A stretch of DNA of 64,000 nucleotides from Vicinamibacterales bacterium (lineage in GTDB: Bacteria; Acidobacteriota; Vicinamibacteria; Vicinamibacterales; 2-12-FULL-66-21), in assembly GCA_035699745.1 (NCBI GenBank), contig DASSPH010000107.1, forward strand, positions 124,001 to 188,000, written 5' to 3'. Below, one piece after another: positions 629 through 62,484 of the stretch (positions are counted from its first letter, which is position 1; each line of letters opens with the position of its first letter). The translations under genes and the position numbers were made by a program. Under the pieces are notes generated by a model that was not told the DNA's origin, ran no database searches, and saw only the letters and a program-made list of their open reading frames with translations.

Positions 629-644
629 AGCAGGAGGGATGCCA
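629..644 (-). promoter_or_regulatory. sigma-54 promoter of the VIT1-like gene
   Basis: On the minus strand the sequence reads TGGCATCCCTCCTGCT, a GG-N10-GC match to the -24/-12 consensus TGGCACG-N4-TTGCW. The predicted start near 618 leaves a 15-nt leader before the GTG at 603. The -24 element lies 60 bp from the midpoint of the paired palindrome at 686-719. Confidence 0.65.
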
Positions 645-685
645 CTTGCGCCGCGGGCATCTCGCGTCAGATTGCCGCGGCGCGC

Positions 686-719
686 GGCGAAAATTCAGCA
701 GCACGGCGGGATATTCCCC
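686..719. promoter_or_regulatory. Paired palindrome, putative activator site (UAS 1)
   Basis: Two related 14-mers, GGCGAAAATTCAGC (686-699) and GCGGGATATTCCCC (706-719), have centres exactly 20 bp apart. The same arrangement recurs at 11 other places in the window. It sits between divergent sigma-54 promoters, 60 bp from the leftward and 73 bp from the rightward -24 element, as expected for an NtrC-type activator site. Confidence 0.7.
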
Positions 720-773
720 ACCGCCGCGGGCGTCGCCCGGACGCCCCGTGCGCCGGTTTCGCCGCGAGGCCGG

Positions 774-789
774 CGGCAGGGTTCGTGCG
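774..789 (+). promoter_or_regulatory. sigma-54 promoter of the serine hydrolase gene
   Basis: CGGCAGGGTTCGTGCG has GG at 775-776 and GC at 787-788 with ten bases between. The predicted start near 800 leaves a 12-nt leader before the ATG at 812. The -24 and -12 boxes are less perfect than at most other promoters here. Confidence 0.5.
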
Positions 790-811
790 TTCTGCAGCCC
801 GAGGGCACATC

Positions 812-2011
812 ATGCGAACTGCTGCAGCACACGAGATTGAGGGATCCGTCAGCCGCGGCTTCGAACCCGTGCGGAGGGCGTTCGAAGACAACTTCGCGCG
901 GCGGGCAGAGTTGGGCGGCGCCTGCTGTGTGTATCGCGGCGGGGAGAAGATCGTCGATCTCTGGGGCGGGTCGCGCAACGAACAGACGGGCGAGCCGTGG
1001 GAGCGCGACACGATGGTCGTCGTCCACTCCGCGACCAAGGGGCTGGCGGCGATGACGCTGGCGATTGCGCACTCGCGCGGCTGGCTGGACTACGAGGAGC
1101 GGGTCGCGGCGTACTGGCCCGAGTTCGCTCAGAACGGCAAGGAACGGATCACGGTGCGGCAGCTCCTCGCGCACCAGGCCGGGCTGTTCGCCTTCGACGA
1201 GCCGGTCGATCGCGATGTCGTCGCGGACCTCGATCGCCTGGCGGCGGTGATGGCGAGACACAAGCCGGCGTGGGAGCCGGGGTCGCGACAGGCGTACCAT
1301 GGCCTCACCCTCGGGTTCTACGAGGGGGAACTGCTCCGCCGCGTCGATCCGCGCCATCGGACGCTCGGTCAGTTCTTCCAGCAGGAGATCGCCGCCCCTC
1401 TCGGCGAAGACGTCTACATCCGGCTTCCCGAAGCGATCCCGAACACGCGTCTCGCCACGCTGACCGCGCCCACCCGGATCGAGATGCTCTTCGGCTTCCG
1501 GCCGCTGCGGCTCATGGTCGAGGGGTTCAAGCCCCATTCGAACATCCACCGCGCGCTGGCCGTGAATCCGGGCACATCCGTCTATTCCGACCAACGGCGG
1601 ATCTACGCGCGGAACCTCGAGGTGCCGTCGGGCGGCGCGGTCGGGACGGCGCGCGGCATCGCCCACGCGTATGGCGTCTTCGCCGACGGCGGACGCGAAC
1701 TGGGACTCCGGCAGGAGACGCTGGACCTGCTGGCGGCGCCGGCCGTTCCCTCGCAGCACGGATTCCATGACGAGTGCATCAAGGGGGAGGTGCAGTTCTC
1801 GCTCGGCTTCATGAAGCCGTGCGAGAACTGGCCGTTCGGCGGCCGGCGGGCGTTCGGCTCGCCCGGCGCGGGCGGCCCTCTCGGCTTTGCCGATCCTGAC
1901 GCCCGCATCGGCTACGCCTATGTGACCAGCCGCATGGGGACGACGTTCACCGGCGATCCGCGAGACGTGGCGCTCAGGGACGCGCTCTACCGCGCGCTGC
2001 GTCGTGAATGA
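812..2011 (+). CDS. Serine hydrolase, beta-lactamase/EstB family
   Basis: A 399-aa member of the beta-lactamase-related serine hydrolase family (PF00144; class C beta-lactamases, EstB-type esterases, DD-peptidases). The nucleophile motif SxxK is visible as SATK at residues 73-76. A tyrosine motif candidate lies in QAYHGLTLGFYEG, and a glycine-rich stretch FGSPGAGG stands where these proteins have their third active-site motif. There is no signal peptide, so it is probably cytosolic and more likely an esterase than a resistance enzyme. The start at 812 is preceded by GAGGG and fits the predicted transcript start. The reading frame stays open for another 80 codons upstream, but that stretch is arginine-rich and runs over the regulatory site, so I exclude it. 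Confidence 0.85.
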   Translation: MRTAAAHEIEGSVSRGFEPVRRAFEDNFARRAELGGACCVYRGGEKIVDLWGGSRNEQTGEPWERDTMVVVHSATKGLAAMTLAIAHSRGWLDYEERVAAYWPEFAQNGKERITVRQLLAHQAGLFAFDEPVDRDVVADLDRLAAVMARHKPAWEPGSRQAYHGLTLGFYEGELLRRVDPRHRTLGQFFQQEIAAPLGEDVYIRLPEAIPNTRLATLTAPTRIEMLFGFRPLRLMVEGFKPHSNIHRALAVNPGTSVYSDQRRIYARNLEVPSGGAVGTARGIAHAYGVFADGGRELGLRQETLDLLAAPAVPSQHGFHDECIKGEVQFSLGFMKPCENWPFGGRRAFGSPGAGGPLGFADPDARIGYAYVTSRMGTTFTGDPRDVALRDALYRALRRE

Positions 2012-2023
2012 CGGATCGCGGCG

Positions 2024-3088: not shown

Positions 3089-3104
3089 GGCAACCACCGT
3101 GCCG
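3089..3104 (-). promoter_or_regulatory. sigma-54 promoter of the DHOD-like gene
   Basis: The minus strand reads CGGCACGGTGGTTGCC, with GGCACG and TTGC at canonical spacing. The leader before the ATG at 3064 would be about 14 nt. The -24 element lies about 82 bp from the midpoint of the site at 3167-3202. Confidence 0.75.
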
Positions 3105-3166: not shown

Positions 3167-3202
3167 GCGGGAGAAATTCCCCGCGAACCGGAATATTCAT
3201 CC
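3167..3202. promoter_or_regulatory. Paired palindrome, putative activator site (UAS 2)
   Basis: Contains GGGAGAAATTCCCC (3169-3182) and CCGGAATATTCATC (3188-3201), centres 19-20 bp apart. It lies between the divergent promoters of the DHOD-like gene and the tandem universal stress protein. Confidence 0.7.
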
Positions 3203-3243: not shown

Positions 3244-3259
3244 GGGCACGTGCGTTGCA
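3244..3259 (+). promoter_or_regulatory. sigma-54 promoter of the tandem USP gene
   Basis: GGGCACGTGCGTTGCA is a near-perfect -24/-12 promoter (GGCACG-N4-TTGCA). The predicted start near 3270 leaves an 11-nt leader before the ATG at 3281. The -24 element lies 60 bp from the midpoint of the site at 3167-3202. Confidence 0.85.
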
Positions 3260-3280: not shown

Positions 3281-4252
3281 ATGAACGTCCGCCCCTCTAT
3301 CCTCTGCCCCATCGACTATTCGGAGCCTTCGGCGGGCGCTCTGCACTACGCCGCGGCACTTGCCGAACACTTCGTCACCCGGCTGATCGTCCTCGGAGTC
3401 GAAGATCCCCTGCTCACGACGGCGCTCGATCTGGGCTCGGGTGTCCACTGGACGCGCGATCTGTCGGAGCGCGAGATCGGCCGGTTCGTGACCGGCGTGT
3501 TCGGCGAAGACGCCGCCGCGCTCCAGATGTGCGAGTACGACGTCGCCGTCGGCAAGCCGCCGGTCGAGATCCTGCGCGTCGCGCGCGAGCGGTCGTGCGA
3601 TCTCATCGTCATGAGCTCGCACGGGCTCACGGGCGCGCGGAAACTGTTCTTCGGCTCGACCACCGAGCGCGTGCTGCGCGAGACCACCGTGCCGGTGCTC
3701 GTGACGCCGCCGCAGAATCCCGGACCGATTCACGTGGAGGACGCCAGACGGCTGCTGCACCGGATCGTGGTCCCGGTCGACCTTTCACCCGCGTCGCTGC
3801 ATCAGACACAGGTCGCGCGCGGCGTCGCGGAAGCGCTGAACCTCCCCCTTCTGCTGCTGCACGTGATCGAGCCGGTCAGGAGCCGCCTGCTCTCGCGGCA
3901 TCACCTGCTGGGACTCGATTCGAACCGCCGCGCCCTGGCGGAGGACGGTCTCGAGGAACTGGTCGCCACGCTGCCGCGGAAGCTTCGCCCGGAACCGCTC
4001 ATCGTCTTCGGCGATCCGGCAGAAGAAGCGGCCAAGGTGGTCCGCGATCGGCAGGCGGGGCTCGTCGTGATGGGGCTGCACGGATCGCCGCTGCTGGGAC
4101 CGCGGATGGGCTCGGTGACGTACCGGATGCTCTGCCTCACGCCGACGCTCGTGCTCGCGCTCCCGCCCAAGGCGATCGGGCGGCCGAAGACCGACGGCCG
4201 TGAGGAGGCCGCGGTCGCGCGAACCGCCGAGGCCGGCGGACCGGATCGTTGA
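3281..4252 (+). CDS. Tandem universal stress protein
   Basis: A 323-aa protein made of two UspA domains, about residues 4-145 and 160-300. Domain 1 has the nucleotide-loop pattern MSSHGLTGARKLFFGS followed by TVPVLV, so it may bind ATP. Domain 2 has a weaker version (MGLHGSPLLGPRMGS). The C-terminal 25 residues are charged and look disordered. The start is supported by GGAGG and by the sigma-54 promoter. It is one of three USP genes in the island. USPs act in the cytosol in survival of starvation, low oxygen and energy stress; the specific role is unknown. It converges on the PAS kinase gene, 18 bp away. Confidence 0.9.
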   Translation: MNVRPSILCPIDYSEPSAGALHYAAALAEHFVTRLIVLGVEDPLLTTALDLGSGVHWTRDLSEREIGRFVTGVFGEDAAALQMCEYDVAVGKPPVEILRVARERSCDLIVMSSHGLTGARKLFFGSTTERVLRETTVPVLVTPPQNPGPIHVEDARRLLHRIVVPVDLSPASLHQTQVARGVAEALNLPLLLLHVIEPVRSRLLSRHHLLGLDSNRRALAEDGLEELVATLPRKLRPEPLIVFGDPAEEAAKVVRDRQAGLVVMGLHGSPLLGPRMGSVTYRMLCLTPTLVLALPPKAIGRPKTDGREEAAVARTAEAGGPDR

Positions 4253-4270: not shown

Positions 4271-5362
4271 CTACTGCGTCCGTGACGCCGGCAGGCTGAT
4301 CTCTGCGATCGTTCCGCCTCCCGGCCGATCCCTGACGGCGATCGTCCCGTCCTGCAGCTCGATCAGCCGCTTGACGATCGCCAGCCCGAGTCCGGTGCCG
4401 CTGACGCGGGTCGTGAAGAACGGCTCGAAGATGCGTTCGCGGATCTCGGCCGGGATGCCCGGTCCGCGATCGCAGACCGCGAAACGGCAGACTCCGTCCG
4501 CCTCGCTCACGCAGATGCCGACCTCTTTGTTCCCGGCGGCCTGACACGCGTTGATCATCAGGTTCAGCAGCGCGGCGCGCAGCATGTCCGGATCGGCGAC
4601 GACGCTGATGCGCCCGTCGACGACGACGCCGATCGGAGCGCCGGATCGCCCGGTGCTCGCCTGCGCGGCCAGCGCGACGTCGCGCGCCAACGCTCTCGAG
4701 TCGACGCTCTGCCGGCGCGGCGGCTTCGGCCGCGCGTAGAGCAGCAGATCGCTCAGCTTGTCGTTCAGGCTGTCGATGCGCTGGATCATCGCCGTGATGG
4801 TGCCGCGATCCCGCACGTCGCAGCGGCCGTCGATGACCTGGAGCGACGCGCGCAAGCCGGCCAGCGGGTTGCGGACTTCGTGCGCCACCACCGCGGCGAG
4901 CGCGCCGAGCTGCGCCAGCGAGGCCTGCTCGCGCAGCCGCGCCTCCGCTTCCTTGCGGGCGGTGATTTCGTACCGGATCGAGAGGTACTGCCGCGGCTTG
5001 CCCGCCCCGTCCATGAAGGGGACGATGGTGGTCTCGACCCAGTAGAACGATCCGTCCTTGGCCCGATTGCGAATCTCGCCCCGCCAGATGCGCCCGCCCG
5101 CGATGGTGCGCCACAGATCGGCCATGAACTCCTTCGGATGGAGGCCGGAGTTGACGACGCGGTGATCCCGGCCGAGCAGCTCCTCGCGCGAGTACTGTGA
5201 GATCTCGCAGAACCTGTCGTTCACGTAGGTGATGACGCCGCGGTGATCGGTCGCGGCGACGATCGCCGATTGATCCAGCGCGTAGCGGAGCTCGTCGAGC
5301 GTCCGGAGCGATTCGGATATCGCCCGCGCCGCCCCCGCGTCGGCCGTGGCTCGCGGCTCCAT
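4271..5362 (-). CDS. PAS-domain sensor histidine kinase, NtrB-like
   Basis: A soluble 363-aa histidine kinase with no membrane segment. A PAS domain with PAC tail occupies about residues 25-145, followed by HisKA with the phospho-acceptor in VVAHEVRNPLAG (His near 161) and a HATPase domain with N-box LMINACQAAG, G1 DRGPGIPAE and G2 GTGLGLAIV. This layout is typical of kinases that pair with NtrC-type activators. The ATG at 5362 overlaps the upstream stop as TGATG; an ATG at 5377 is possible. It is the last gene of the unit starting at 6778, itself under the paired site and a sigma-54 promoter. It is therefore the best candidate partner for the activator at 20369-21736. That pairing is inferred. 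Confidence 0.9.
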   Translation of the reverse strand: MEPRATADAGAARAISESLRTLDELRYALDQSAIVAATDHRGVITYVNDRFCEISQYSREELLGRDHRVVNSGLHPKEFMADLWRTIAGGRIWRGEIRNRAKDGSFYWVETTIVPFMDGAGKPRQYLSIRYEITARKEAEARLREQASLAQLGALAAVVAHEVRNPLAGLRASLQVIDGRCDVRDRGTITAMIQRIDSLNDKLSDLLLYARPKPPRRQSVDSRALARDVALAAQASTGRSGAPIGVVVDGRISVVADPDMLRAALLNLMINACQAAGNKEVGICVSEADGVCRFAVCDRGPGIPAEIRERIFEPFFTTRVSGTGLGLAIVKRLIELQDGTIAVRDRPGGGTIAEISLPASRTQ

Positions 5363-5586
5363 CACCGTAGCGAGCATGTGACGACGTGTTCTGCGGCGAT
5401 GTCCTCGCCGACGCGCTGCAGCAGCCGGCCCAGCGGCCCGCCCGACCCGGCGGCCCGCTTCAGCCGGCAGCTGCCGTCCGCCCGCTGGTACTCGGGACAG
5501 ATCACGTGATCGACCAGTCCCTCGAAGTCCACGACGCGAGTGACGTGGGCGCCGAGCACCGGGCAGCGGACGTTCTCAATGCGCAT
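5362..5586 (-). CDS. Small cysteine-containing protein
   Basis: A 74-aa protein of unknown function. It begins MRIENVRCPVLGAHVTRV and contains a second cysteine pair in ICPEYQ and GSCRLK, so three to four cysteines could hold a metal ion or form a redox site. A basic glycine-rich middle is followed by a cysteine in the last five residues. It overlaps the upstream gene by 11 bp and the kinase start by one base, so the three are probably translationally coupled. I do not recognise the family. Confidence 0.6.
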   Translation of the reverse strand: MRIENVRCPVLGAHVTRVVDFEGLVDHVICPEYQRADGSCRLKRAAGSGGPLGRLLQRVGEDIAAEHVVTCSLR

Positions 5587-6805: not shown

Positions 6806-6821
6806 AGCAACGGTCGTACCG
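6806..6821 (-). promoter_or_regulatory. sigma-54 promoter of the DUF3365-kinase operon
   Basis: The minus strand reads CGGTACGACCGTTGCT, with GG and GC ten bases apart. The predicted start near 6795 precedes the ATG at 6778. The -24 element lies 70 bp from the midpoint of the site at 6873-6906. Confidence 0.7.
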
Positions 6822-6872
6822 CCGCCCTGCGCTCCGGTGGCCGTCGTTCGCCGGGGGGATGTCCGCGGGGGC

Positions 6873-6906
6873 GCGAAGAATTTCGCACTGTGGGGAAACA
6901 CTCCCC
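6873..6906. promoter_or_regulatory. Paired palindrome, putative activator site (UAS 3)
   Basis: GCGAAGAATTTCGC (6873-6886) is followed by GGGGAAACACTCCCC (6892-6906), a near-perfect palindrome. Centres are about 19.5 bp apart. It lies between divergent sigma-54 promoters at 6806 and 6949. Confidence 0.75.
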
Positions 6907-6948: not shown

Positions 6949-6964
6949 GGGCATCCGATTTGCG
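6949..6964 (+). promoter_or_regulatory. sigma-54 promoter of the 7002 gene
   Basis: GGGCATCCGATTTGCG has GG and GC at correct spacing, 61 bp from the midpoint of the shared site. The predicted start is near 6975, followed by AGGAGG at 6991 and the ATG at 7002. Confidence 0.7.
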
Positions 6965-7001: not shown

Positions 7002-7337
7002 ATGGATCTCTTCGTCACGCGCGCCGCCACCATCGCTCACGATGTGGAGGCGGCGGGTTCGTCACGGGCATTTCGCTCGGCGGTGCAGGATTTCGAGCGG
7101 CTGCTGTCGCGCATAGCGCGCTACCCGTCCGACTTCCTCACCGACGGCGACGCTCACGCCCTGGCGTCGCTCGCCGACATCGTGGTGAATCGCATCGAGG
7201 ATCGGCTGGACGCGCACGCCGATCGCAGCAAGGTGCAGCTCGAGCTCGCCCGCCGGATCTATCAGGTCCGCCGCGATCTCGAGACCATCTTCGCGGTGGT
7301 GCGGACCGCCGACGAGGGTGCCGCCCTGCGCGCCTGA
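7002..7337 (+). CDS. Hypothetical helical protein
   Basis: A 111-aa, mainly alpha-helical, cytosolic protein starting MDLFVTRAATIAHDVE. A consensus AGGAGG lies five bases before the ATG. It has no recognisable motif; the C-terminal half is charged (NRIEDRLDAHADRSK). Its last 76 bp overlap the 3' end of the CHAD gene on the other strand, an unusually long tail-to-tail overlap. Its promoter and site place it in the sigma-54 regulon. Confidence 0.65.
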   Translation: MDLFVTRAATIAHDVEAAGSSRAFRSAVQDFERLLSRIARYPSDFLTDGDAHALASLADIVVNRIEDRLDAHADRSKVQLELARRIYQVRRDLETIFAVVRTADEGAALRA

Positions 7338-14384: not shown

Positions 14385-14400
14385 AGCACGGAGCGTGCCC
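14385..14400 (-). promoter_or_regulatory. sigma-54 promoter of the six-gene PPDK/CHAD operon
   Basis: The minus strand reads GGGCACGCTCCGTGCT (GGCACG-N4-GTGCT). The predicted start near 14374 leaves a 13-nt leader carrying AGGAGA. The -24 element lies 71 bp from the midpoint of the site at 14453-14486. Confidence 0.8.
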
Positions 14401-14452: not shown

Positions 14453-14486
14453 GTCGATTTTTCCCCGGTGGTGGTGATTCTTCCGC
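14453..14486. promoter_or_regulatory. Paired palindrome, putative activator site (UAS 4)
   Basis: On the minus strand the two 14-mers are GCGGAAGAATCACC and GGGGAAAAATCGAC, centres exactly 20 bp apart. It lies between the end of the CheB gene and the promoter of the six-gene operon. Confidence 0.7.
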
Positions 14487-14505: not shown

Positions 14506-15132
14506 TCATGCGATTCCTCCGGAAACGGCGGGAACGGCCTCGCCGCGGACGAGGTGGGCGATTGCGGGGGCGATGGCGTCGATCGGAAGCACGTAGTCGA
14601 CGGCGCCGGATGCGATCGCGGAGCGCGGCATGCTCCAGTGCTCCGCGGTGGCCGGGTCCTGCGCGATCACCACGCCGCCGCAGGCCTTCACTTCCTGCAC
14701 GCCGTCCGTCGCATCGCTGCCGCCGCCGGTGAGGACCACGGCGATGAAGCGCCCCTCGAAGACCCTCGCCGCGGACGCGAACAGCGGATTGGCGGACGAG
14801 CGGACGAACTTGATCTTGGTGCCGTCCCGGTACTCGAAGGTCCGGTCGGGACTGACGATCAGGTGTCGGTCAGGACGCGCGAGATAGATCTGCCCGGTAC
14901 GAAGCGGTTCGCCTGCCGCGGCGAGACGTATCTGCCAGGGTGTGCCGCGGGTCAGCACGGCGCCCATGCCGTCCTGGCGGATGGGCGACCGGTGCTGCAG
15001 CAGCACGACCGCGGCAGGCAGATCGAGCGGCAGCGCCGCGAGGATCGTGCGGATCGCGCCGATGCCGCCGGCGGACGCGGCGATGCCGACGAGCCAGTCG
15101 GGGCGGCGCTCATCCGCCGGTATTCCGCTCAC
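14506..15132 (-). CDS. Stand-alone CheB-type methylesterase domain
   Basis: A 208-aa CheB catalytic domain without the receiver domain of chemotaxis CheB. The Ser-His-Asp triad is visible: VGIAASAGG (Ser near 17), VLLQHRSP and [11 protein letters not shown]. It should be a cytosolic glutamate methylesterase/amidase, but no chemotaxis genes are nearby. Such orphan domains occur in stress and signalling clusters. The GTG at 15132 overlaps the BON gene stop as GTGA. It is the second gene of the BON-CheB unit under a sigma-54 promoter. Confidence 0.85.
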
Positions 15133-15791
15133 GGCACCACGTCGATGCGGTTGTCCACGCTCGAGACGCCGGGCGCCGACCACGCGGCATGCATCGCGTC
15201 GTAGCGTTCGCGCCACGAGCGGACGTTGCCGGTCAGGATCACCCGCCCGCCCTCGGCGGTGACGTGAATGCGGCGCGCCTCCAGGTCGGCATAGCGATGC
15301 AGCGCGTCGGCGATGCGCTTCTCGACGTCGCGGGGGGAGGTCCGCGGCTTGATCTCGATCTTGTTGGCGACGCCGCGCACGCCGCGCAGGTAGCGCACGG
15401 CGCGTTCCGCCGCCAGCTTCTGGAACATCCACTCGACCTCTCCGGTGAGCGTCAGGTGGCCGTTGCGCACCGTGACGCCGATGCCCAGCGGAACGTCGAC
15501 GCGCTTCTTCAGCGCGTCCAGCGCTTCGCGCGCCAGGTCCGGATCGATGTGGTCGTGCGCCAGCTTGACCTCGAGCTCGTTGGCGATCCCGCGCACGCCG
15601 TAGACGCGCCGCACCGCGCGCTCCGCCGCCAGCTTGGCGCTGTAGGTGTCGACGAACCCCGACAGCGTCACGACGCCGTCCTCGGCCGAGACGCCGACCA
15701 GCGATTCGTCGAACGAGGGCTCCCACGCGAGCTGGCGGATCACCGCTTCGCGCAGGATCTGATCCTTGGTGGAGATGGCTGTAATACGCAT
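15129..15791 (-). CDS. Triple BON-domain protein
   Basis: A 220-aa protein of three consecutive BON domains (about 5-75, 78-148 and 150-220). Each has the pattern of a short helix, a VTLSG/LTLTG/VILTG strand and a conserved glycine ([33 protein letters not shown]). It has no signal peptide, so unlike OsmY it appears cytosolic. BON domains are thought to bind membranes or hydrophobic ligands and are common in stress regulons. It lies 16 nt after the predicted sigma-54 start. Confidence 0.88.
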
Positions 15792-15817: not shown

Positions 15818-15833
15818 GGCAAGCCGCGTACCG
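15818..15833 (-). promoter_or_regulatory. sigma-54 promoter of BON-cheB
   Basis: The minus strand reads CGGTACGCGGCTTGCC, with GG and GC ten bases apart. The -24 element is 62 bp from the midpoint of the site at 15877-15910. The predicted start is near 15807. Confidence 0.75.
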
Positions 15834-15876: not shown

Positions 15877-15910
15877 GCGGAAAGTTTCGCGCCGGTGCGG
15901 ATTGATCCGC
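15877..15910. promoter_or_regulatory. Paired palindrome, putative activator site (UAS 5)
   Basis: GCGGAAAGTTTCGC (15877-15890) and GCGGATTGATCCGC (15897-15910) have centres exactly 20 bp apart. The second is a palindrome apart from its central bases. It serves two divergent sigma-54 promoters and is one of the clearest copies. Confidence 0.8.
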
Positions 15911-15962: not shown

Positions 15963-15978
15963 CGGCACTCCGATTGCT
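15963..15978 (+). promoter_or_regulatory. sigma-54 promoter of the ADH-USP operon
   Basis: CGGCACTCCGATTGCT matches GGCAC-N5-TTGCT. The -24 element is 71 bp from the midpoint of the shared site. The predicted start is near 15989, before the ATG at 16010. Confidence 0.82.
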
Positions 15979-20368: not shown

Positions 20369-21736
<1,368 letters not shown>

Positions 21737-21754: not shown

Positions 21755-21770
21755 TGCAGGCAGGATGCCG
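21755..21770 (-). promoter_or_regulatory. sigma-54 promoter of the activator gene
   Basis: The minus strand reads CGGCATCCTGCCTGCA, with GG and GC ten bases apart. The -24 element is 70 bp from the midpoint of the site at 21822-21856. The leader is about 8 nt and contains GGTGAG. Confidence 0.72.
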
Positions 21771-21821: not shown

Positions 21822-21856
21822 GCGGATTTTTCCCCAGCGCCGGCAGAATATTCCCC
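21822..21856. promoter_or_regulatory. Paired palindrome, putative autoregulatory site (UAS 6)
   Basis: Minus-strand 14-mers GGGGAATATTCTGC and GGGGAAAAATCCGC have centres 21 bp apart. A third, weaker half (GGCCAATTTTCGCC, 21791-21804, plus strand) lies nearer the promoter. It is located directly upstream of the activator gene. Confidence 0.72.
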
Positions 21857-22685: not shown

Positions 22686-22701
22686 AGCAATCGCTGTGCC
22701 C
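22686..22701 (-). promoter_or_regulatory. sigma-54 promoter of the 22660-22406 unit
   Basis: The minus strand reads GGGCACAGCGATTGCT, almost consensus (GGCAC-N5-TTGCT). The -24 element is 70 bp from the midpoint of the site at 22753-22787. Confidence 0.82.
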
Positions 22702-22752: not shown

Positions 22753-22787
22753 GCGGAGGAGTTCGCAGCGCGGTGGGAAGAGTTCAC
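22753..22787. promoter_or_regulatory. Paired palindrome, putative activator site (UAS 7)
   Basis: GCGGAGGAGTTCGC (22753-22766) and TGGGAAGAGTTCAC (22774-22787) have centres 20-21 bp apart. Its last four bases overlap the 3' end of the HAD-ATPase gene. Confidence 0.65.
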
Positions 22788-27483: not shown

Positions 27484-27499
27484 AGCAAGCCGGGTACCT
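27484..27499 (-). promoter_or_regulatory. sigma-54 promoter of the transpeptidase-hsp20-groEL operon
   Basis: The minus strand reads AGGTACCCGGCTTGCT, with GG and GC ten bases apart and a good -12 box. The -24 element is exactly 60 bp from the midpoint of the site at 27541-27574. Confidence 0.75.
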
Positions 27500-27540: not shown

Positions 27541-27574
27541 GCGGAGAAGTCCGCAGGCGCGCGAAAGAATCCAC
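27541..27574. promoter_or_regulatory. Paired palindrome, putative activator site (UAS 8)
   Basis: GCGGAGAAGTCCGC (27541-27554) and GCGAAAGAATCCAC (27561-27574) have centres exactly 20 bp apart. It is located between the divergent genes at 27471 and 27638. Confidence 0.72.
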
Positions 27575-27607: not shown

Positions 27608-27623
27608 TGGTCTGTTCTGTGCT
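27608..27623 (+). promoter_or_regulatory. Possible sigma-54 promoter of the 27638 gene
   Basis: TGGTCTGTTCTGTGCT keeps GG-N10-GC but has a weak -24 box. It resembles the promoter at 45731. The -24 element is 52 bp from the site midpoint, one turn closer than the commonest spacing. Confidence 0.45.
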
Positions 27624-31793: not shown

Positions 31794-31809
31794 GGCAACG
31801 GCCATGCCA
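31794..31809 (-). promoter_or_regulatory. sigma-54 promoter of the USP-ppsA unit
   Basis: The minus strand reads TGGCATGGCCGTTGCC, very close to consensus. The -24 element is exactly 60 bp from the midpoint of the site at 31851-31884. The leader would be about 50 nt, longer than at most promoters here. Confidence 0.82.
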
Positions 31810-31850: not shown

Positions 31851-31884
31851 GAGGAATTGTTCGCGGTGGTGCGGAGCTTTACGC
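31851..31884. promoter_or_regulatory. Paired palindrome, putative activator site (UAS 9)
   Basis: GAGGAATTGTTCGC (31851-31864) and GCGGAGCTTTACGC (31871-31884) have centres exactly 20 bp apart. It lies between the outer-membrane barrel gene end and the USP gene. Confidence 0.68.
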
Positions 31885-39597: not shown

Positions 39598-39613
39598 CGC
39601 ACAAAGCCTGCCG
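39598..39613 (-). promoter_or_regulatory. sigma-54 promoter of the nine-gene operon
   Basis: The minus strand reads CGGCAGGCTTTGTGCG, GG-N10-GC with fair boxes. The leader is about 15 nt. The -24 element is 83 bp from the midpoint of the site at 39678-39711. Confidence 0.6.
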
Positions 39614-39677: not shown

Positions 39678-39711
39678 GGGGATTCTTCCGCAGCGATGCG
39701 CAAGAATTCGC
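39678..39711. promoter_or_regulatory. Paired palindrome, putative activator site (UAS 10)
   Basis: Plus-strand 14-mers GGGGATTCTTCCGC (39678-39691) and GCGCAAGAATTCGC (39698-39711) have centres exactly 20 bp apart. It lies between the nine-gene operon and the P-type ATPase gene. An in-frame ATG at 39696 lies inside it, which argues against that ATG as the ATPase start. Confidence 0.72.
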
Positions 39712-39743: not shown

Positions 39744-42374
39744 ATGACCGGAGGCGAGGCGCGGGTCTTGCTCGACGGATCGGCGATGGCTGCCAGCCGC
39801 TTTGTCGCGGAGCGAGCGGTCGCATCACGCGAACGGAGTGGAGGCGAACCGTCTCCGCGCGCGTACTGGTCGCTGGGTGCGGACGAACTTCTCCACCGTC
39901 TCGGGTCGAGTCGGGACGGGCTGTCGCCGGCCGAGGCCCGCCGCCGACTGCGGCAGGACGGCCCCAACGAGCTCGGCACGCAGCGCCGGCTGTCGCGGCT
40001 CCGGGTCTTCCTCCAACAGCTCCGCAGTCCGCTGCTGCTCCTCCTCATCTTCGCCGCCGGCGCTTCAGCCGCCACGCGCGAGTGGATCGACGCCGGCATC
40101 GTCGCGCTGATCGTGCTCGTCTCGGTGCTGGTGGGATACTCGCGTGAGTACAGCGCGCAGCGCGCCGCCGACGCATTGCGGGCCCGCATCGGCACGCGCG
40201 CCACTGTGGTGCGCGCCGGCGGCGTCGCGCACGTGGCCACCGGGGAGATCGTGCGCGGCGACGTGGTGCTGCTTGCCGCCGGCAGTCTCGTTCCTGCCGA
40301 TGCCGTCGTGCTCGAGGCGGCGGACTTCTTCGTGAGCGAAGCGGTGCTGACGGGCGAGAGCTTTCCCGTCCGGAAACAGGTGGGTGCCGTGGGGATTCGC
40401 GCGGCGCTCCACGAGCGCAGCAACTGCGTGTTCCTCGGCGCGAACGTGCGGAGCGGCTCGGCCCGCTGCGTCGTCGTCGCGACCGGGCCCTCAACCGAGT
40501 TCGGTGCGATCGCCCGGCGGCTCACGCTGAGGCCGCCGGAAACGGAGTTCGACCGCGGCATCCGCCGCTTCGGCTACGTGCTGACGAGCGCGATGACCGT
40601 CATGGTGCTGCTGGTCTTCGGGGCACACGTGCTCCTCGGCCGCGCGCCGATAGAAACCCTGCTCTTCGCGGTCGCCCTCGCGGTCGGCCTCAGCCCGGAA
40701 CTCCTGCCGGCCATCCTGAGCGTGAACCTCGCACGCGGCGCGCAGATGATGGCGGGGCATGGCGTTCTGGTGCGGCGGCTCCCCGCCATCGAGAACCTGG
40801 GGAGCATGAACATCCTGTGCACGGACAAGACCGGTACCCTCACCGACGGCGTCGTGCAGCTGGACGGCGCCTACGACATCCACGGCCGTGCCTCGGAGCT
40901 GGTGCTGCAACTCGGCGCGCTCAACGCCGCCCTGACGACTGGCGTCAACAGCCCGCTGGACGACGCGATTACTGCAGCCTGCACACCGCCGCCGGGCCAG
41001 GCCGCCAAACTCGGCGAGATCCCGTTCGACTTCGTGCGCAAGCGCGTCAGCGTGGCGGTGAAGACGATCGAGGGCACGGTGCTGATCACCAAAGGGGCAT
41101 TCCCCCGCGTCATCGAGGTGTGCACCCGCACGCCGGACGGAACCCCGCTGACGCCGGCGGTGCTCGCCGCGGTCCGTGAGCGCTACGACACGTGGTCGCG
41201 GCAGGGCGTCCGCGTGCTGGGGGTGGCTCAGCGGGCCGCGGCCGACCAACCCGATTACCGCCGGGACGACGAGCGGGAAATGACCTTTGCCGGCTTCCTC
41301 ACATTCGTGGATCGGCCGAAGGAAGGCGTGGCCGAAGCGATTGCCGCGCTCGCCGCGCTCGGCGTCTCGGTGAAACTGATCACGGGTGACAACACGCTGG
41401 TCGCGCAGCACATCGCGGCGCGGGTCGGCCTGCCCGCCGCGCGCCTGATCACCGGCCGGGAGCTCGACGAGCTCCACGACGAAGCGCTGTGGTCCGCAGC
41501 CGAGAGGACGGACGTCTTCGCCGAAGTGGATCCGAACCAGAAGGAGCGCATCATCCTCTCGCTCAAGAAGATGGGACACGTCGTCGGATTCCTCGGCGAC
41601 GGCGTGAACGATGTGCCGGCGATGCATGCCGCCGATACCAGCCTCTCGGTCGAGGGCGCGGTGGACGTCGCCCGGGAGGCGGCGGACTTCGTGCTGCTCG
41701 AACGCGGACTCGACGTGATCCGCCGCGGCATCGAGGAGGGGCGCAAGACGTTCGCCAATACGCTCAAGTACGTCCTGATCACCACCAGCGCCAATCTCGG
41801 GAACATGGCGAGCATGGCGGCGGCATCCGTGTTCCTGCCGTTCCTGCCGCTCACTGCCGGACAGATCCTGCTGAACAACTTCCTGTCGGACATCCCGGCG
41901 GTCGGCATCGCCGGCGATGCCGTCGATCGCGAGCTGGTGGACCGGCCGCGGCGCTGGGACATGGCGTTCATCACGCGCTACATGATCGAGTTCGGCGCGC
42001 TGAGCTCGCTGTTCGACGTCGTGACGTTCGCTGTCCTGCTCGTGCTCTTTCACGCGGATCCGTCGGCGTTCCGCACCGGCTGGTTCGTCGAGTCACTGCT
42101 CACGGAGCTGCTGGTCGTGCTGGTGATGCGGACGCGGCGTCCGTTCTTCCGCAGCCGGCCCGGCCGTCTGCTCCTCCTGTCCACCACGGCGCTGATCCCG
42201 ATTACGTTCGCCCTTCCCTACGCGCCCTTCGCGGCCGCGTTCGGATTCGTGCCGCTGCCGGCTGCCGTGGTCGCCGCGATCGGCGGCATCGCCTGTCTGT
42301 ATGTCGCGGCAACCGAACTGCAGAAGCAGTGGTTCTATCGCGCGACAACCGGCGTGATCGCCGATGGAGCGTAA
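39744..42374 (+). CDS. P-type ATPase, MgtA-like
   Basis: A cation-transporting P-type ATPase of about 876 aa. Motifs: TGES (actuator), SPELLP in helix 4, phosphorylation site CTDKTGTLT, and GDGVNDVPA. The helix-4 region (VGLSPELLPAILSVNLARGA) and NLGSMNILCTDKTG match Mg2+-type P3B ATPases (MgtA/CorD); this could also be a related cation pump. Start choice is uncertain: 39591, 39696, 39744 and 39786 are all in frame with no clear ribosome site. A weak GG-N10-GC promoter (AGGCGCGGGTCTTGCT, 39757-39772) would favour 39786. The gene end overlaps the Crp/Fnr gene by 11 bp. Confidence 0.9.
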   Translation: MTGGEARVLLDGSAMAASRFVAERAVASRERSGGEPSPRAYWSLGADELLHRLGSSRDGLSPAEARRRLRQDGPNELGTQRRLSRLRVFLQQLRSPLLLLLIFAAGASAATREWIDAGIVALIVLVSVLVGYSREYSAQRAADALRARIGTRATVVRAGGVAHVATGEIVRGDVVLLAAGSLVPADAVVLEAADFFVSEAVLTGESFPVRKQVGAVGIRAALHERSNCVFLGANVRSGSARCVVVATGPSTEFGAIARRLTLRPPETEFDRGIRRFGYVLTSAMTVMVLLVFGAHVLLGRAPIETLLFAVALAVGLSPELLPAILSVNLARGAQMMAGHGVLVRRLPAIENLGSMNILCTDKTGTLTDGVVQLDGAYDIHGRASELVLQLGALNAALTTGVNSPLDDAITAACTPPPGQAAKLGEIPFDFVRKRVSVAVKTIEGTVLITKGAFPRVIEVCTRTPDGTPLTPAVLAAVRERYDTWSRQGVRVLGVAQRAAADQPDYRRDDEREMTFAGFLTFVDRPKEGVAEAIAALAALGVSVKLITGDNTLVAQHIAARVGLPAARLITGRELDELHDEALWSAAERTDVFAEVDPNQKERIILSLKKMGHVVGFLGDGVNDVPAMHAADTSLSVEGAVDVAREAADFVLLERGLDVIRRGIEEGRKTFANTLKYVLITTSANLGNMASMAAASVFLPFLPLTAGQILLNNFLSDIPAVGIAGDAVDRELVDRPRRWDMAFITRYMIEFGALSSLFDVVTFAVLLVLFHADPSAFRTGWFVESLLTELLVVLVMRTRRPFFRSRPGRLLLLSTTALIPITFALPYAPFAAAFGFVPLPAAVVAAIGGIACLYVAATELQKQWFYRATTGVIADGA

Positions 42375-44117: not shown

Positions 44118-45590
44118 ATGGTAGACCTACACGTGAGCCGCTTTCTGCAAAAGGTGCGAACCGCCTGGTGCGCCTCCGCATCGCGCTACGCCGCTGCGCT
44201 CGGTCTGTTCGCCGGCGCGGTCCTGCTTCGGGACCTGTTCACGGAATCCTTCGGCACCGACGCGCCCTACCTGCATTTCTACCCCGCGATCATCATTGCG
44301 GCCTGGTATGGCGGTCTCGGCCCGGGGCTGCTGACGACCGCCTTGTCGACCCTCGCGGCGATGTACTCCCTGCTGCCGCCGGCGGGGTTCGCGGTGGGCG
44401 ATCCCACCGACCAGTTGTCGCTGGCCGTGTTCGCGGCCACCGGCATCGTGATCTCCTCGTTGAATCATCGGCTGCACGTGACGCAGCAGGCCCAGCGGGA
44501 GGCCATTGCGACGTCCACCGCGCGGGCCGAGCGCCTCGACGCCATCCTCAACATGACGGCGGACGGCATCATCGTCATCGACGCCGCGGGACGCATCGAA
44601 GCGTTCAATCGCGGCGCCGCGGATCTTTTCGGCTATCCGGAGAGTGAAGTGCTCGGGCGGAACGTCAGCATCCTGATGCCATCGCCGCACCACGAACAGC
44701 ACGGCGGCTATCTCGAGCGCTATCTGCGCACCGGCGATCCGAAGATCATCGGCATCGGACGGGAGGTAGAGGGCCGCCGGCGCGACGGCAGTGTGTTCCC
44801 GATGGAACTGTCGGTCGGCGAGATGCTGATCGACGGGGAACGGAAGTTCACCGGCATCATCCACGACCTGACGAGGCGCGTGGAGTCTGAAGTCCGGCTG
44901 CGGGAACAGGCGGCGCTGGCGAGGCTCGGCGAAATGGCGGCGGTGATCGCGCACGAGGTGAAGAACCCGCTTGCCGGAATTCGCGGCGCCATTCAGGTCT
45001 TTGGCAGCCGCATGGTGCAGGACGGCGCGAGCGCGCAGATTCTCGGCGAGATCGTGTCCCGCATCGACGCGCTCGACCGCATGATGAAGGATCTGCTGCT
45101 CTTCGCGCGTCCACCGAACCCGAAGCGGGCGCCGGTGGACATCGTGCCGCTGGTCAAGACCACGGCGAATCTCCTCAATGAAGATCCCGCACTGAAGCAC
45201 CTGGACATTCAGATCGGCGGGACCGCGCCGCCGGTCGCCGCCGATCCCGACATGCTCAGAATCGTCTTCCAGAACCTGTTCCTGAACAGCGCTCAGGCGA
45301 TGCGCGGCAAGGGCCGGATCCTGGTTGGCGTGGAGATGGTCGACGGGAACTGCCAGATCGCGTTCTCGGACGGCGGCCCCGGCATCCCCGCGGACGTCCG
45401 CGAGAAGATCTTCACGCCGTTCTTCACCACGAAGGCTCGAGGATCGGGCCTGGGTCTGCCGACGGTGAAACGGTTCGTCGAAGCGCACAACGGCGAGGTC
45501 GACGTCGACTGCCCGCCCGCCGGAGGCACGACCGTCGTCATCCGGCTCCCAATCGCGGAGGCCGCGGGCGGACAGCCGGCGGTCGTCTGA
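44118..45590 (+). CDS. DUF4118-PAS membrane sensor histidine kinase
   Basis: About 490 aa. A DUF4118/KdpD-like membrane region has about four helices (YAAALGLFAGAVLL to LSLAVFAATGIVIS), then a PAS domain (about 145-265, with MTADGIIVIDAAGRIEAFN), HisKA with phospho-acceptor in AVIAHEVKNPLAG, and HATPase with NLFLNSAQAM, DGGPGIPA and GSGLGLPTVKR. The catalytic part closely resembles that of the kinase at 4271. A sigma-70-like promoter (TTGCGC-17-TATGGT, 44094-44122) overlaps the ATG at 44118; if used, translation would start at the GTG at 44133 or later. No paired site is present. Confidence 0.9.
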   Translation: MVDLHVSRFLQKVRTAWCASASRYAAALGLFAGAVLLRDLFTESFGTDAPYLHFYPAIIIAAWYGGLGPGLLTTALSTLAAMYSLLPPAGFAVGDPTDQLSLAVFAATGIVISSLNHRLHVTQQAQREAIATSTARAERLDAILNMTADGIIVIDAAGRIEAFNRGAADLFGYPESEVLGRNVSILMPSPHHEQHGGYLERYLRTGDPKIIGIGREVEGRRRDGSVFPMELSVGEMLIDGERKFTGIIHDLTRRVESEVRLREQAALARLGEMAAVIAHEVKNPLAGIRGAIQVFGSRMVQDGASAQILGEIVSRIDALDRMMKDLLLFARPPNPKRAPVDIVPLVKTTANLLNEDPALKHLDIQIGGTAPPVAADPDMLRIVFQNLFLNSAQAMRGKGRILVGVEMVDGNCQIAFSDGGPGIPADVREKIFTPFFTTKARGSGLGLPTVKRFVEAHNGEVDVDCPPAGGTTVVIRLPIAEAAGGQPAVV

Positions 45591-45632: not shown

Positions 45633-45670
45633 GCGGGCAATTTCCCGCACGCACCCGAAGGAGTTCCCGG
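45633..45670. promoter_or_regulatory. Paired palindrome, putative activator site (UAS 11)
   Basis: GCGGGCAATTTCCCGC (45633-45648) and CCGAAGGAGTTCCC (45655-45668) have centres about 20-21 bp apart. It lies upstream of the exported protein gene at 45793. Confidence 0.6.
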
Positions 45671-45730: not shown

Positions 45731-45746
45731 TGGCCTGCTCTGTGCT
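45731..45746 (+). promoter_or_regulatory. sigma-54 promoter of the 45793 gene
   Basis: TGGCCTGCTCTGTGCT keeps TGGC and GTGCT at correct spacing. The -24 element is 81 bp from the midpoint of the site at 45633-45670. The predicted start is near 45757. Confidence 0.55.
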
Positions 45747-55934: not shown

Positions 55935-57688
55935 GCCGATCGCCCCGGCGACGACGCGGCGCGGCGTCCGAGCTGTGCGAAACGCGGATCGCCGTGCACC
56001 TGGTCGAGGCGCGGGTCGACGCGGACGTACGCGATCCAGCCGGACCGCTCCTGCACCGCACGGTCGAACCACTCGAATGCCGCGTCCACCTCGTCCAACG
56101 CCGCGCGGATGACGCCGAGCTCGTAGGCAAAGAGTCCCTTGTCACCGCGCAACCGCTCGAGGTCGGAGGCGACCCGGCGCGCCGCCCGGTGTTCGTGTGC
56201 CGAGGCCAGCGCGTGGCCAAGTCCGGCGAGCATCACCGGGCTGTTCGACGAACACCGCACCGCTTCCTTCAGCCTCTCGACTGCGTCAACGCCGCGTCCC
56301 AGCCGCTCGAGCGCCCAGCCGGCGAAGAAGTGACCCCAATGAAATCCCGGCTCCATGCGCACCACGCGCTCCGACTGCTCCAGCGCCGCGGCGTATTCGC
56401 GCGCCATGTAGTGATGCCACGCGACATGCGCGTGCATCAGCGGATTCAGCGGATCCAGTTCGACGATCCGCCGGCAGGCGCCGAGCGACTCGCCGAACCG
56501 CGCCGCGGCGCAGAGCGCGTGCGAGTGCCAGTGGTGCGCGTCCACCCATGCCGGATTCAGCGCGATCGCCTGGCCGAACTCCTCGAGCGCGCCGGCGGTG
56601 TTCCAGTCGAAGTGCAATTGCGCATATCCGACGGCCGTGTGGCCGGCGGCGAGCTGGGGATCGAGCGCGAGCGCGCGGTCCGCCGCCGCCTTCGCCCTGG
56701 CGAGCGCCTCCGACGGCGGAAGCAGACCCGACTCCCAGGCGCCAAGCGTCCCGTAGACCGAGGCGAGCGCGGCATGCGCGGGAGCAAATGTCGGGTCGAC
56801 CTCCACGGCGCGCTGAAACCGATCGAGCGCTTGCCACACCACGTCGCCGGGCCGCTTGTTCCAGAGGAAGCGCCCCTCGAGATACAGCGCGTACGCGTCG
56901 CTGCTCGAAGTCTTCGAGGTGACGAGCGGACCGGCGCGCCGCACGACGTGCTGCGTCAGCGTGTCCGCAATCATGCCGGCGATATCGTCCTGGACGGCGA
57001 AGATGTCTTCGAGGCGCCGATCGAACCGGCCGCTCCACGCGGTGAACCCGTCGCCGGCGCGCACCAGTTGCACCGCGATCCTGACCATCTCGCCCGACTT
57101 GCGGACGCTGCCTTCGAGGAGCCAGGCGACGATCAGATCCCGCGCGATGGCCTTCGCGTCAATCGCCTGGCCCTTGAACCGCTGTGAAGAGGTGTAGGAC
57201 GCGACGCGCAGCTCGGAAACCCGCCCGAGCGCGTTGATGATCTCTTCGCTCATCCCCTCGCAGAAGAACGCCTGGTCGCGAGCCGCGCTCATGTCCGTGA
57301 ACGGCAGGACGGCAATCGAATTGTCAGGGGCGGCGTCCGCCGACGCCCCTGCGGACGCCGCCGGCGCGTCCCGGCTCACGGCGGCCGCAAACCGGTAGCC
57401 GCGTTTCGGGACGGTCTCGATATACCGCGTCCCGTCCTGTTCCAGCACCTGGCGAAGGCTGAAAATGCCCTTGGTCAGGTTCCCTTCCTCGACCGCCACG
57501 TCGGGCCAGACCGATCGCAGCAACGTGTCCTTGTCGACGAGCCGTCCGGCATTGGCGAGGAGCGCGACGAGCAGATCGAAGAGCTTGGGCGTCAGGGGAA
57601 CCGGCACGCTGTCCCGCTTCAGCGATCGGTCGGCGGCATCGAGAACGAACGGGCCGAACCTGAACGCGGAGCTCGCCGGTTCCGGCAT
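55928..57688 (-). CDS. Winged-helix TPR regulator, CadC/OmpR-like
   Basis: A 586-aa protein. Residues 8-105 form an OmpR-type winged helix (FGPFVLDAADRSLKRD to GTRYIETVPKRGYRF). Residues 125-270 match the TolB-like adenylyl-cyclase-associated region (SIAVLPFTDMSAARDQAFFC, GMSEEIINALGRV). TPR repeats fill the rest (ALDRFQRAVEVDPTFAPAHA, LEEFGQAIALNPAWVDAHHW). There is no membrane helix, unlike CadC. Such regulators are very numerous in Acidobacteriota. A TAGAAT -10-like element lies just upstream near 57700-57706. Confidence 0.9.
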   Translation of the reverse strand: MPEPASSAFRFGPFVLDAADRSLKRDSVPVPLTPKLFDLLVALLANAGRLVDKDTLLRSVWPDVAVEEGNLTKGIFSLRQVLEQDGTRYIETVPKRGYRFAAAVSRDAPAASAGASADAAPDNSIAVLPFTDMSAARDQAFFCEGMSEEIINALGRVSELRVASYTSSQRFKGQAIDAKAIARDLIVAWLLEGSVRKSGEMVRIAVQLVRAGDGFTAWSGRFDRRLEDIFAVQDDIAGMIADTLTQHVVRRAGPLVTSKTSSSDAYALYLEGRFLWNKRPGDVVWQALDRFQRAVEVDPTFAPAHAALASVYGTLGAWESGLLPPSEALARAKAAADRALALDPQLAAGHTAVGYAQLHFDWNTAGALEEFGQAIALNPAWVDAHHWHSHALCAAARFGESLGACRRIVELDPLNPLMHAHVAWHHYMAREYAAALEQSERVVRMEPGFHWGHFFAGWALERLGRGVDAVERLKEAVRCSSNSPVMLAGLGHALASAHEHRAARRVASDLERLRGDKGLFAYELGVIRAALDEVDAAFEWFDRAVQERSGWIAYVRVDPRLDQVHGDPRFAQLGRRAASSPGRSAQ

Positions 57689-57763
57689 GGGGGAAGAATT
57701 CTACAAGAAAAATTCCAGCCGCCCGGAAGGACAGCCGCCGGCTCGCGCCGGTATCGTCAGGCC

Positions 57764-61300: not shown

Positions 61301-61315
61301 GAAGCCGCCCGCCCC

Positions 61316-61346: not shown

Positions 61347-61364
61347 AGACACGGAGGTTCACAC

Positions 61365-61856
61365 ATGCGCTTACTGCCGATCACGTGCCTGTTCACGATT
61401 CTTGGCGCCGCGGCGGCGCCGGTCACCGCCGCGCAGCATCAGCACGGGTCCGCTGACCAGCGGGCCCATGCCGTCATGGGCTTCGACCAGGAGCGGACCA
61501 CGCATCATTTCGTCTTGTTCACCGACGGCGGTGCCATCGACGTCGCCGTCAAGGACCGCGCGGACGCCAGGAACCGCGACGCCATCCGGTCGCACCTGCC
61601 CCACCTCGCGGCGATGTTCGGCAGCGGCGACTTCGACGCGCCCATGTTGGTACACGATGCTCGCAACGTGCCGGGGACGGTGACGATGGCGGCCAGGAAA
61701 GCGGCGATCGTCTACCGCTACGTGGAGACTCCCAACGGGGGACGCGTGGACATCCGGACGTCCGACCGCGACGCGCTCGAGGCTGTGCACGCGTTCCTGA
61801 AGTATCAGATCGCCGAGCACAAGACCGGCGATCCGCTGACGCCCCGGCCGCGGTGA
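61365..61856 (+). CDS. Small exported protein under a MerR-type promoter
   Basis: A 163-aa exported protein: signal peptide LLPITCLFTILGAAAAPVTA, then AQHQHGSADQRAHAVMGFDQ with several histidines that could bind metal. The mature part contains RTTHHFVLFTDGGAIDVAV and ends AVHAFLKYQIAEHKTGDPL. I know similar proteins as a common but unnamed acidobacterial family. The promoter suggests metal induction and a periplasmic role. GGAGG lies upstream of the ATG. Confidence 0.75.
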   Translation: MRLLPITCLFTILGAAAAPVTAAQHQHGSADQRAHAVMGFDQERTTHHFVLFTDGGAIDVAVKDRADARNRDAIRSHLPHLAAMFGSGDFDAPMLVHDARNVPGTVTMAARKAAIVYRYVETPNGGRVDIRTSDRDALEAVHAFLKYQIAEHKTGDPLTPRPR

Positions 61857-61875
61857 CCGGTGCGTCGCGTACTTG

Positions 61876-62181
61876 TTACCAGCGCGATTCGCGACGCTGC
61901 CGGCCGCCGCGGAAGCCGTCGTTCGAGCGCGGCGACAGCGGTTTCGCTTCGTTGACCGCGAGACTGCGGCCCCCGAGCTGGTGCTGATCGAGCGTGGCGA
62001 TCGCGCGCTGGGCGCCTTCGACATCGCTCATCTCGACGAAAGCAAAACCGCGTGCCTGGCCGGTGGCCCGGTCGCGCATGATGTTGACGCCGGCGACCTG
62101 ACCGGCGCCGCCGAACAGGGTCTGAAGATCGGACTCGGTGGTGTCGTACGGCAGGTTGCCGACGTACAGCTTGGTGTTCAT
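61876..62181 (-). CDS. RRM RNA-binding protein
   Basis: A 101-aa protein with one RNA recognition motif: RNP2 KLYVGNLPYD and RNP1 ARGFAFVEM, followed by a short glycine/arginine-rich tail (GFRGGRQRRESRW). Such bacterial proteins resemble cyanobacterial Rbp cold-shock RNA chaperones. The upstream region contains TATCCT near 62320-62327, which could be a -10 element and would give a leader of over 100 nt. Confidence 0.93.
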   Translation of the reverse strand: MNTKLYVGNLPYDTTESDLQTLFGGAGQVAGVNIMRDRATGQARGFAFVEMSDVEGAQRAIATLDQHQLGGRSLAVNEAKPLSPRSNDGFRGGRQRRESRW

Positions 62182-62362
62182 GGATACTCCTGCATCTCAC
62201 GGATGCACTTGATCTGATGGCAGGCTCGAGCGGGATGCCCGGCGACGGAGCGCAGGAGAGTCGAACGAGTTCGGATCTGATGCGGAAGTCGGTAAAAGCG
62301 AGCTGTCAGAAGCCAATCACAGGATACCACATCGCCGCGTGCGGCTCGGGTCTTGCCCGGTC

Positions 62363-62396
62363 GGGGAATTCTCGGCGCCGGCGCGGAAAATCTCCC
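62363..62396. promoter_or_regulatory. Paired palindrome, putative activator site (UAS 12)
   Basis: GGGGAATTCTCGGC (62363-62376) and GCGGAAAATCTCCC (62383-62396) have centres exactly 20 bp apart. It lies in the 326-bp gap between the RRM gene and the Cys-rich protein gene; apart from this site and the promoter at 62469 the gap holds no gene I can support. Confidence 0.68.
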
Positions 62397-62468
62397 GCTC
62401 GCTGATCCAGCCCTTTTCAATCCACGCGAAAATCGCCGGGAATTGCGCGCGCGTCCGTCCCTGCCGGC

Positions 62469-62484
62469 TGGCGCGTGTGTTGCC
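62469..62484 (+). promoter_or_regulatory. sigma-54 promoter of the efflux-linked unit
   Basis: TGGCGCGTGTGTTGCC has GG and GC ten bases apart and a good TTGC box. The -24 element is 91 bp from the midpoint of the site at 62363-62396. The predicted start near 62495 leaves 13 nt before the GTG at 62508. Confidence 0.65.

What the first reader, a model, noticed from the sequence alone, without database searches (positions are those of the whole stretch)
629..62484. Undescribed sigma-54 regulon defined by a paired 14-bp palindrome at 12 places
Seen directly: 12 intergenic regions each carry two related 14-mers (about GCGGAA-N3-TTCCGC) with centres 19-21 bp apart, usually exactly 20. Every one is followed, on one or both sides, by a GG-N10-GC (-24/-12) promoter. 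I count 17 such promoters, several near-perfect (3244, 15963, 22686, 31794). The units controlled cover most of the first 46 kb plus the efflux unit at 62.5 kb. Known: NtrC-type activators bind paired upstream sites and work with sigma-54. Inference: this is one coordinated regulon that gathers stress, chaperone, phosphate, envelope and energy genes, and I know of no description of it.
Basis: partly seen in the sequence, partly recalled or inferred. Interest (0 to 1): 0.95.

Follow-up and report, generated by a model that had tools for sequence, protein, structure and literature searches.

The report
Oxygen/redox sigma-54 regulon in Acidobacteriota
Twelve paired palindromes in this window are very probably docking sites for one activator that, with sigma-54 RNA polymerase, seems to switch on low-oxygen and energy-stress genes across a soil-bacterium (Acidobacteriota) genome; the regulon appears undescribed, although a similar one is known in Myxococcus.

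Summary
Twelve intergenic sites carry two 14-bp palindromes (about GCGGAA-N2-TTCCGC, not N3) with centres 19-21 bp apart. Shuffled windows give 0.07 such pairs; the window has 13, two overlapping. Each has a GG-N10-GC sigma-54 promoter on at least one side. A matrix trained only on the window finds 18 more intergenic pairs elsewhere in this genome and 34 in relatives, with the same phase.

The likely activator lies in the window: an NtrC-type response regulator (20369-21736) behind its own pair, with two paralogues. In 16 of 20 neighbourhoods its orthologues sit near a kinase with an MmoS/Aer/NifL-like FAD-type PAS (11) or a FixL-like haem PAS (5). Targets include cbb3 oxidase, PFOR, FeoB, USPs, Hsp20/chaperonin, CBS and PEP enzymes. 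I conclude it is an oxygen/redox-limitation regulon.

The nearest described system is NmpRSTU of Myxococcus, which controls similar genes; its operator and sensor differ, and EBPs carrying NmpR-type operators form a separate clade. There are no transcript or binding data: signal and direct binding are inferred.

The parts
20369..21736 (-). NtrC-type activator: receiver + AAA+ (GAFTDA loop) + Fis-type HTH; proposed regulator, autoregulated
   Evidence: Pfam; alignment of 18 orthologues/paralogues with Asp10/11/53 and Lys103 invariant
686..719 (.). paired operator
629..644 (-). sigma-54 promoter, 58.5 bp from pair centre; drives VIT-family gene 13-603
3169..3201 (.). paired operator, bidirectional
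3244..3259 (+). sigma-54 promoter, 59 bp; universal stress protein 3281-4252
   Evidence: best in window
3089..3104 (-). sigma-54 promoter, 81 bp; DHODH-like gene, likely true start 3063
6873..6906 (.). paired operator, bidirectional; a further overlapping pair at 6853
6806..6821 (-). sigma-54 promoter, 68.5 bp; minus-strand run 6778 to 4271 that ends in the PAS kinase
6949..6964 (+). sigma-54 promoter, 59.5 bp; 111-aa ORF 7002-7337
4271..5377 (-). histidine kinase with MmoS/Aer/NifL-like FAD-type PAS; candidate sensor
14453..14486 (.). paired operator
14385..14400 (-). sigma-54 promoter, 69.5 bp; minus-strand run 14361 to 7262 (Yip1, PEP-utilising enzyme, phosphoesterase, Na/H antiporter, CHAD)
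15877..15910 (.). paired operator, bidirectional
15963..15978 (+). sigma-54 promoter, 69.5 bp; alcohol dehydrogenase 16010 and USP 17128
15818..15833 (-). sigma-54 promoter, 60.5 bp; BON 15129-15791 and CheB-like 14506-15132
21822..21856 (.). paired operator of the regulator's own gene (best-scoring pair)
21755..21770 (-). sigma-54 promoter, 69 bp; NtrC-type activator and CoA-ligase/acetyltransferase 17665-20334
22753..22787 (.). paired operator (weaker)
22686..22701 (-). sigma-54 promoter, 69 bp; small genes 22412-22660 and 21894-22406
27541..27574 (.). paired operator
27484..27499 (-). sigma-54 promoter, 58.5 bp; L,D-transpeptidase, Hsp20, chaperonin, HAD/ATPase run 27435 to 22784
31851..31884 (.). 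paired operator
31794..31809 (-). sigma-54 promoter, 58.5 bp; USP 31210-31731 and PPDK-type enzyme 28686-31124
39678..39711 (.). paired operator; a weak GG-N10-GC at 39613 (-) could serve the CBS/ABC run
39757..39772 (+). sigma-54 promoter, 62.5 bp; cation P-type ATPase (start probably 39786) and Crp-type regulator
45635..45668 (.). paired operator (weakest)
45731..45746 (+). sigma-54 promoter, 79.5 bp; outer-membrane barrel protein, start probably 45793
44133..45590 (+). DUF4118-PAS histidine kinase with FixL-type haem PAS; candidate sensor (not itself behind a detected promoter)
62363..62396 (.). paired operator
62469..62484 (+). sigma-54 promoter, 89.5 bp; putative efflux run from 62963 past the window end

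Best explanation
The paired palindromes are upstream activating sites for an NtrC-type response regulator encoded in the window (20369-21736) and its paralogues. When oxygen or the electron-acceptor supply falls, a partner histidine kinase (MmoS/Aer/NifL-like FAD PAS or FixL-like haem PAS) is thought to raise its phosphorylation. The activated protein binds two adjacent dimer sites about two helical turns apart (20 bp), assembles its AAA+ ring, contacts sigma-54 polymerase waiting at GG-N10-GC on a fixed face of the helix, and opens the promoter. Several sites serve divergent genes, and the regulator activates its own gene. The set induced includes cbb3 oxidase, PFOR, ferrous-iron uptake, universal stress proteins, chaperones, CBS and PEP enzymes and cation pumps. 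Shown by sequence: sites, promoters, phasing, conservation, gene content. Inferred: direct binding by this protein, the signal, and the direction of the response.
For: Pairs far above chance. Sigma-54 promoters at phased distances: window R=0.81, held-out own genome R=0.71 (p~3e-4), relatives R=0.75 (p~3e-7), same phase in all three. Autoregulatory pairs at two of the three paralogues, promoter at 69-69.5 bp. Orthologue neighbourhoods: 35 pairs, 29 intergenic where intergenic DNA is 14%. 11 of 20 orthologues near an FAD-type and 5 near a FixL-type PAS kinase. Targets cbb3, PFOR, FeoB, USP, Hsp20, CBS; cbb3 site conserved in 4 of 5 relatives at 80-82 bp. One rpoN gene in the genome.
Against: No binding or transcript data. 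The activator has GAFTDA instead of GAFTGA; NorR G266D, which has the same change, still activates (PMC2941729). Which of three paralogues uses which site is unknown. Four of 20 neighbourhoods hold neither kinase type. Some targets (efflux, phosphate, YceI) are not obviously oxygen-linked. Motif hits occur in 7 of 30 genomes without an orthologue, three of them clearly coding-region chance.
Confidence: 0.8

Rival explanations
1. A real sigma-54 regulon of the same regulator, but the signal is general energy, envelope, metal or starvation stress rather than oxygen or redox.
For: Window targets include USPs, chaperones, an efflux run, an outer-membrane protein and peptidoglycan enzymes; PAS domains are not proof of haem or flavin binding.
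Against: cbb3 oxidase, PFOR, FeoB and cytochrome c/NrfD targets, conserved cbb3 site, and redox/oxygen-type PAS kinases next to orthologues.
Confidence: 0.14
2. The paired sites belong to a different NtrC-type activator of the genome; the window's EBP is merely one of its targets.
For: The genome has about 30 sigma-54 AAA+ proteins, and binding was not tested.
Against: The pair sits at or beside this clade's genes in many relatives; motif-model hits are commoner where the clade is present (17/29 against 7/30, p=0.008).
Confidence: 0.05
3. Chance: palindromes and GG-N10-GC sites picked by eye from GC-rich intergenic DNA.
For: Single half-sites are only weakly enriched (97 against 68 expected), and loose GG-N10-GC matches are common.
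Against: 13 pairs against 0.07 in shuffles; none in 148 kb of control loci, promoters at 12/13 pairs against 4% of random points; held-out phasing and conservation.
Confidence: 0.01

Closest known systems
NmpR / NmpRSTU oxygen-utilisation regulon of Myxococcus xanthus (PMC11841059)
   Same: NtrC-type response regulator with sigma-54, two palindromic sites per promoter, autoregulation, hypoxia-linked targets: CcoI + cbb3 operon, USP, CBS protein.
   Different: Operator GCGCA-N5-TGCGC spaced 14-15 nt between sites; sensor is a protoglobin kinase with a hybrid-kinase relay. Here: GCGGAA-N2-TTCCGC, centres 20 bp apart, no protoglobin in the genome, FAD- or haem-PAS kinases, separate EBP clade.
FixLJ
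   Same: FixL-type haem-PAS kinase; cbb3 as a target (general knowledge; cited in PMC11841059).
   Different: FixJ is not a sigma-54 activator; here the response regulator is NtrC-type.
MmoS / NifL-NifA type flavin sensors with sigma-54 activators
   Same: FAD-type PAS of the kinase is nearest to MmoS, then Aer and NifL.
   Different: Those control methane monooxygenase or nitrogenase genes (general knowledge), not a respiratory/stress regulon.
DosR dormancy regulon (Mycobacterium)
   Same: Similar gene themes (USPs, small heat-shock protein, CBS, cation P-type ATPase) under hypoxia; general knowledge.
   Different: DosR is a LuxR-type regulator without sigma-54; convergent at most.

Membership tests
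NtrC-type sigma-54 regulon | activator with receiver, sigma-54 AAA+ and Fis-type HTH domains | tested here: met
NtrC-type sigma-54 regulon | GG-N10-GC promoters downstream of paired palindromic sites | tested here: met
   helically phased
NtrC-type sigma-54 regulon | rpoN present | tested here: met
   one match
NtrC-type sigma-54 regulon | canonical GAFTGA sigma-54 contact loop | tested here: not met
   GAFTDA in most of the clade, GAFTGA in some; NorR G266D still active (PMC2941729), so not disqualifying
NtrC-type sigma-54 regulon | direct binding and sigma-54-dependent transcription | not testable with these tools
   needs EMSA and transcription assays
NmpR (Myxococcus) | operator GCGCA-N5-TGCGC pairs | tested here: not met
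   none at the twelve sites; two loose pairs at 63.7-63.9 kb, inside a gene
NmpR (Myxococcus) | protoglobin kinase NmpU | tested here: not met
   no PF11563 match in the genome
NmpR (Myxococcus) | EBP in the NmpR clade | tested here: not met
   three myxobacterial EBPs with Nmp-type operators stand apart, support 96-100; NmpR itself was not available
NmpR (Myxococcus) | oxygen-use targets (cbb3, USP, CBS) | tested here: met
FixL-type oxygen sensor | haem PAS with proximal His (kinase 44133-45590 and 5 orthologue neighbours) | tested here: met
   E 5e-35 to FixL; His in all 5; haem binding itself not tested
FixL-type oxygen sensor | FixJ partner | not tested
   the neighbouring regulator is NtrC-type instead
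FAD-PAS redox sensor (MmoS/NifL/Aer) | PAS sequence of the FAD-binding group | tested here: met
   MmoS E 2e-55 and 2e-54; FAD binding not measured

The most novel reading that the evidence does not exclude
A conserved master low-oxygen regulon of an Acidobacteriota order, run by one NtrC-type activator whose partner kinase alternates between a flavin (redox) and a haem (oxygen) sensor among lineages, evolved separately from NmpR, FixLJ/FNR and DosR but converging on the same gene set.
Probability: 0.6. Interest if true: 0.75.

Novelty: new variant of a known kind. Interest (0 to 1): 0.64.

Why it matters
Acidobacteriota are abundant in soils, yet I found no described sigma-54 or oxygen regulon for them in the papers held. 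This gives a regulator, an operator, candidate sensors and about 30 operator sites in one genome, with a spacing rule sharp enough to predict targets in relatives. It touches cbb3 respiration and PFOR, and one paralogue sits beside a nitrous-oxide-reductase-type gene. It also offers a natural case of one activator clade paired with two sensor chemistries, and a large promoter set for studying enhancer phasing.

Tried and rejected
Chance: rejected. NmpR orthology: rejected by operator, sensor and tree. PPDK as a conserved target: no pair within 1.5 kb in three relatives, one of which lacks the EBP. Literature searches for Acidobacteria with sigma-54 gave no described regulon. Weak GG-N10-GC sites at 27608 (+) and 39613 (-) are left as doubtful.

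Full report
THE OBSERVATION. Leave-one-out scoring keeps every pair above every non-site position. Shuffled windows hold 0.07 pairs on average against 13. The half-site is GCGGAA-N2-TTCCGC. Single half-sites are only weakly enriched (97 against 68): the information is in the pair. A distance scan of half-sites shows the excess at 20 bp.

THE PROMOTERS AND THEIR PHASE. With an approximate sigma-54 matrix of my own, every pair has a GG-N10-GC site on at least one side, and the window's four best sigma-54-like sites all lie 58-70 bp from a pair centre. Distances from pair centre to the -24 box fall near 59, 69, 80 and 90 bp. A Rayleigh test at 10.5 bp gives R=0.81 for the window (p~1e-4), R=0.71 for pairs elsewhere in the genome (p~3e-4) and R=0.75 for relatives (p~3e-7), with phases of 6.4, 6.9 and 6.6 bp. 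The last two sets were not used to build the matrix. Random intergenic points have such a promoter in 4% of cases; held-out own-genome pairs in 14 of 18. I read this as enhancer and promoter held on a fixed face of the helix.

THE REGULATOR. The window encodes one full NtrC-type activator, 20369-21736, whose upstream region holds the best-scoring pair and a phased promoter at 69 bp. Two close paralogues exist: on C72, 88% identical, also behind a pair with a promoter at 69.5 bp (L048), two genes from a nitrous-oxide-reductase-type gene; and on C88, 72% identical, beside a PAS kinase. Among 60 close genomes (own included) 30 have an orthologue (498 bits or more) and 30 have none (best 428 bits). 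The tree puts these EBPs in one fully supported clade. The only close named member is an Acidobacteria MAG (L142), so I place the genome in Acidobacteriota; Vicinamibacterales would be my guess and was not tested.

THE SENSORS. The kinase at 4271-5377 lies at the end of a minus-strand run behind promoter 6821 and has a PAS domain nearest to MmoS, then Aer and NifL, known FAD-type redox sensors (the C88 kinase likewise). The kinase at 44133-45590 has a FixL-type haem PAS with the proximal His. In 20 orthologue neighbourhoods, 11 carry the first type and 5 others the second, with the His kept in all 5; 4 have neither. That kinase and EBP work together is inferred from this linkage.

THE TARGETS. 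In the window: USPs, a DHODH-like enzyme, BON and CheB-like proteins, alcohol dehydrogenase, an ADP-forming acyl-CoA-synthetase-like protein, Hsp20, chaperonin, PPDK-type enzymes, a cation P-type ATPase and a Crp-type regulator. Elsewhere in the genome: a CcoI-CcoNO cbb3 operon, PFOR, FeoB, Hsp20 and CBS, a phosphate-binding-type protein, metallo-beta-lactamase/rhodanese and SQR-like genes, YceI, NrfD and cytochrome c, USP. Upstream of CcoI, four of five relatives have a pair with a sigma-54 promoter at 80-82 bp. Motif-model hits occur in 17 of 29 relatives with the EBP and 7 of 30 without (Fisher p=0.008); of those seven, three are coding-region chance hits, and one (G010) shows what looks like a truncated copy of the EBP at the locus.

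MECHANISM. See Best explanation. The step from low oxygen or an over-reduced chain to an active EBP, and its sign, are inferred from the kinases and gene content. GAFTDA in place of GAFTGA is compatible with activation: NorR G266D has the same change and is constitutively active (PMC2941729); what it does here is unknown.

COMPARISON. NmpR of M. xanthus works like this and controls overlapping genes (PMC11841059). Three tests say this is not an NmpR system: operator, sensor and tree. Caveat: myxobacterial EBPs with Nmp-type operators stood in for NmpR itself. I know of no description of the present regulon and the searches held none, but subscription papers are not in the library.

LIMITS. Gene calls come from my own codon-based caller; some starts are wrong and were corrected by eye. 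The sigma-54 matrix is approximate, and weights were set from the published consensus as I remember it. The count of sites in the genome is incomplete.

Noticed in passing
L079, L083, L086, L089, L090, L142 (downstream of EBP orthologues): A 74-aa NifU-like protein followed by an AAA+ sigma-54 activator without a receiver domain, often behind a pair with a strong sigma-54 promoter (e.g. 18.1 bits at 89.5 bp in L079).
   Followed up: no
L074, L077, L086, L088-L091, L128, L135, L142: A short stand-alone receiver protein ('VDDEPLIRWSL') beside the EBP, possibly a phosphate sink as proposed for NmpT.
   Followed up: no
L048:6473-10715 (own genome, contig C72): The 88%-identical EBP paralogue lies next to an iron-sulphur-repair-like gene and a nitrous-oxide-reductase-type gene, which suggests a link to denitrification.
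   Followed up: partly
L153, L157, L179 (Kofleriaceae, Polyangiaceae): GCGCA-N5-TGCGC pairs upstream of NtrC-type genes: the NmpR operator appears conserved in other myxobacterial families.
   Followed up: partly
L036:3989 and L036:6071 (own genome, contig C61): Two good intergenic pairs without a recognisable sigma-54 promoter, near cytochrome c and two-component genes; possible repression or a diverged promoter.
   Followed up: no
window 57680-57720: AT-rich palindromic sequence (GGGGAAGAATTCTAC...GAAAAATTCC) resembling a half-site in a divergent intergenic region; it does not reach the pair threshold.
   Followed up: no
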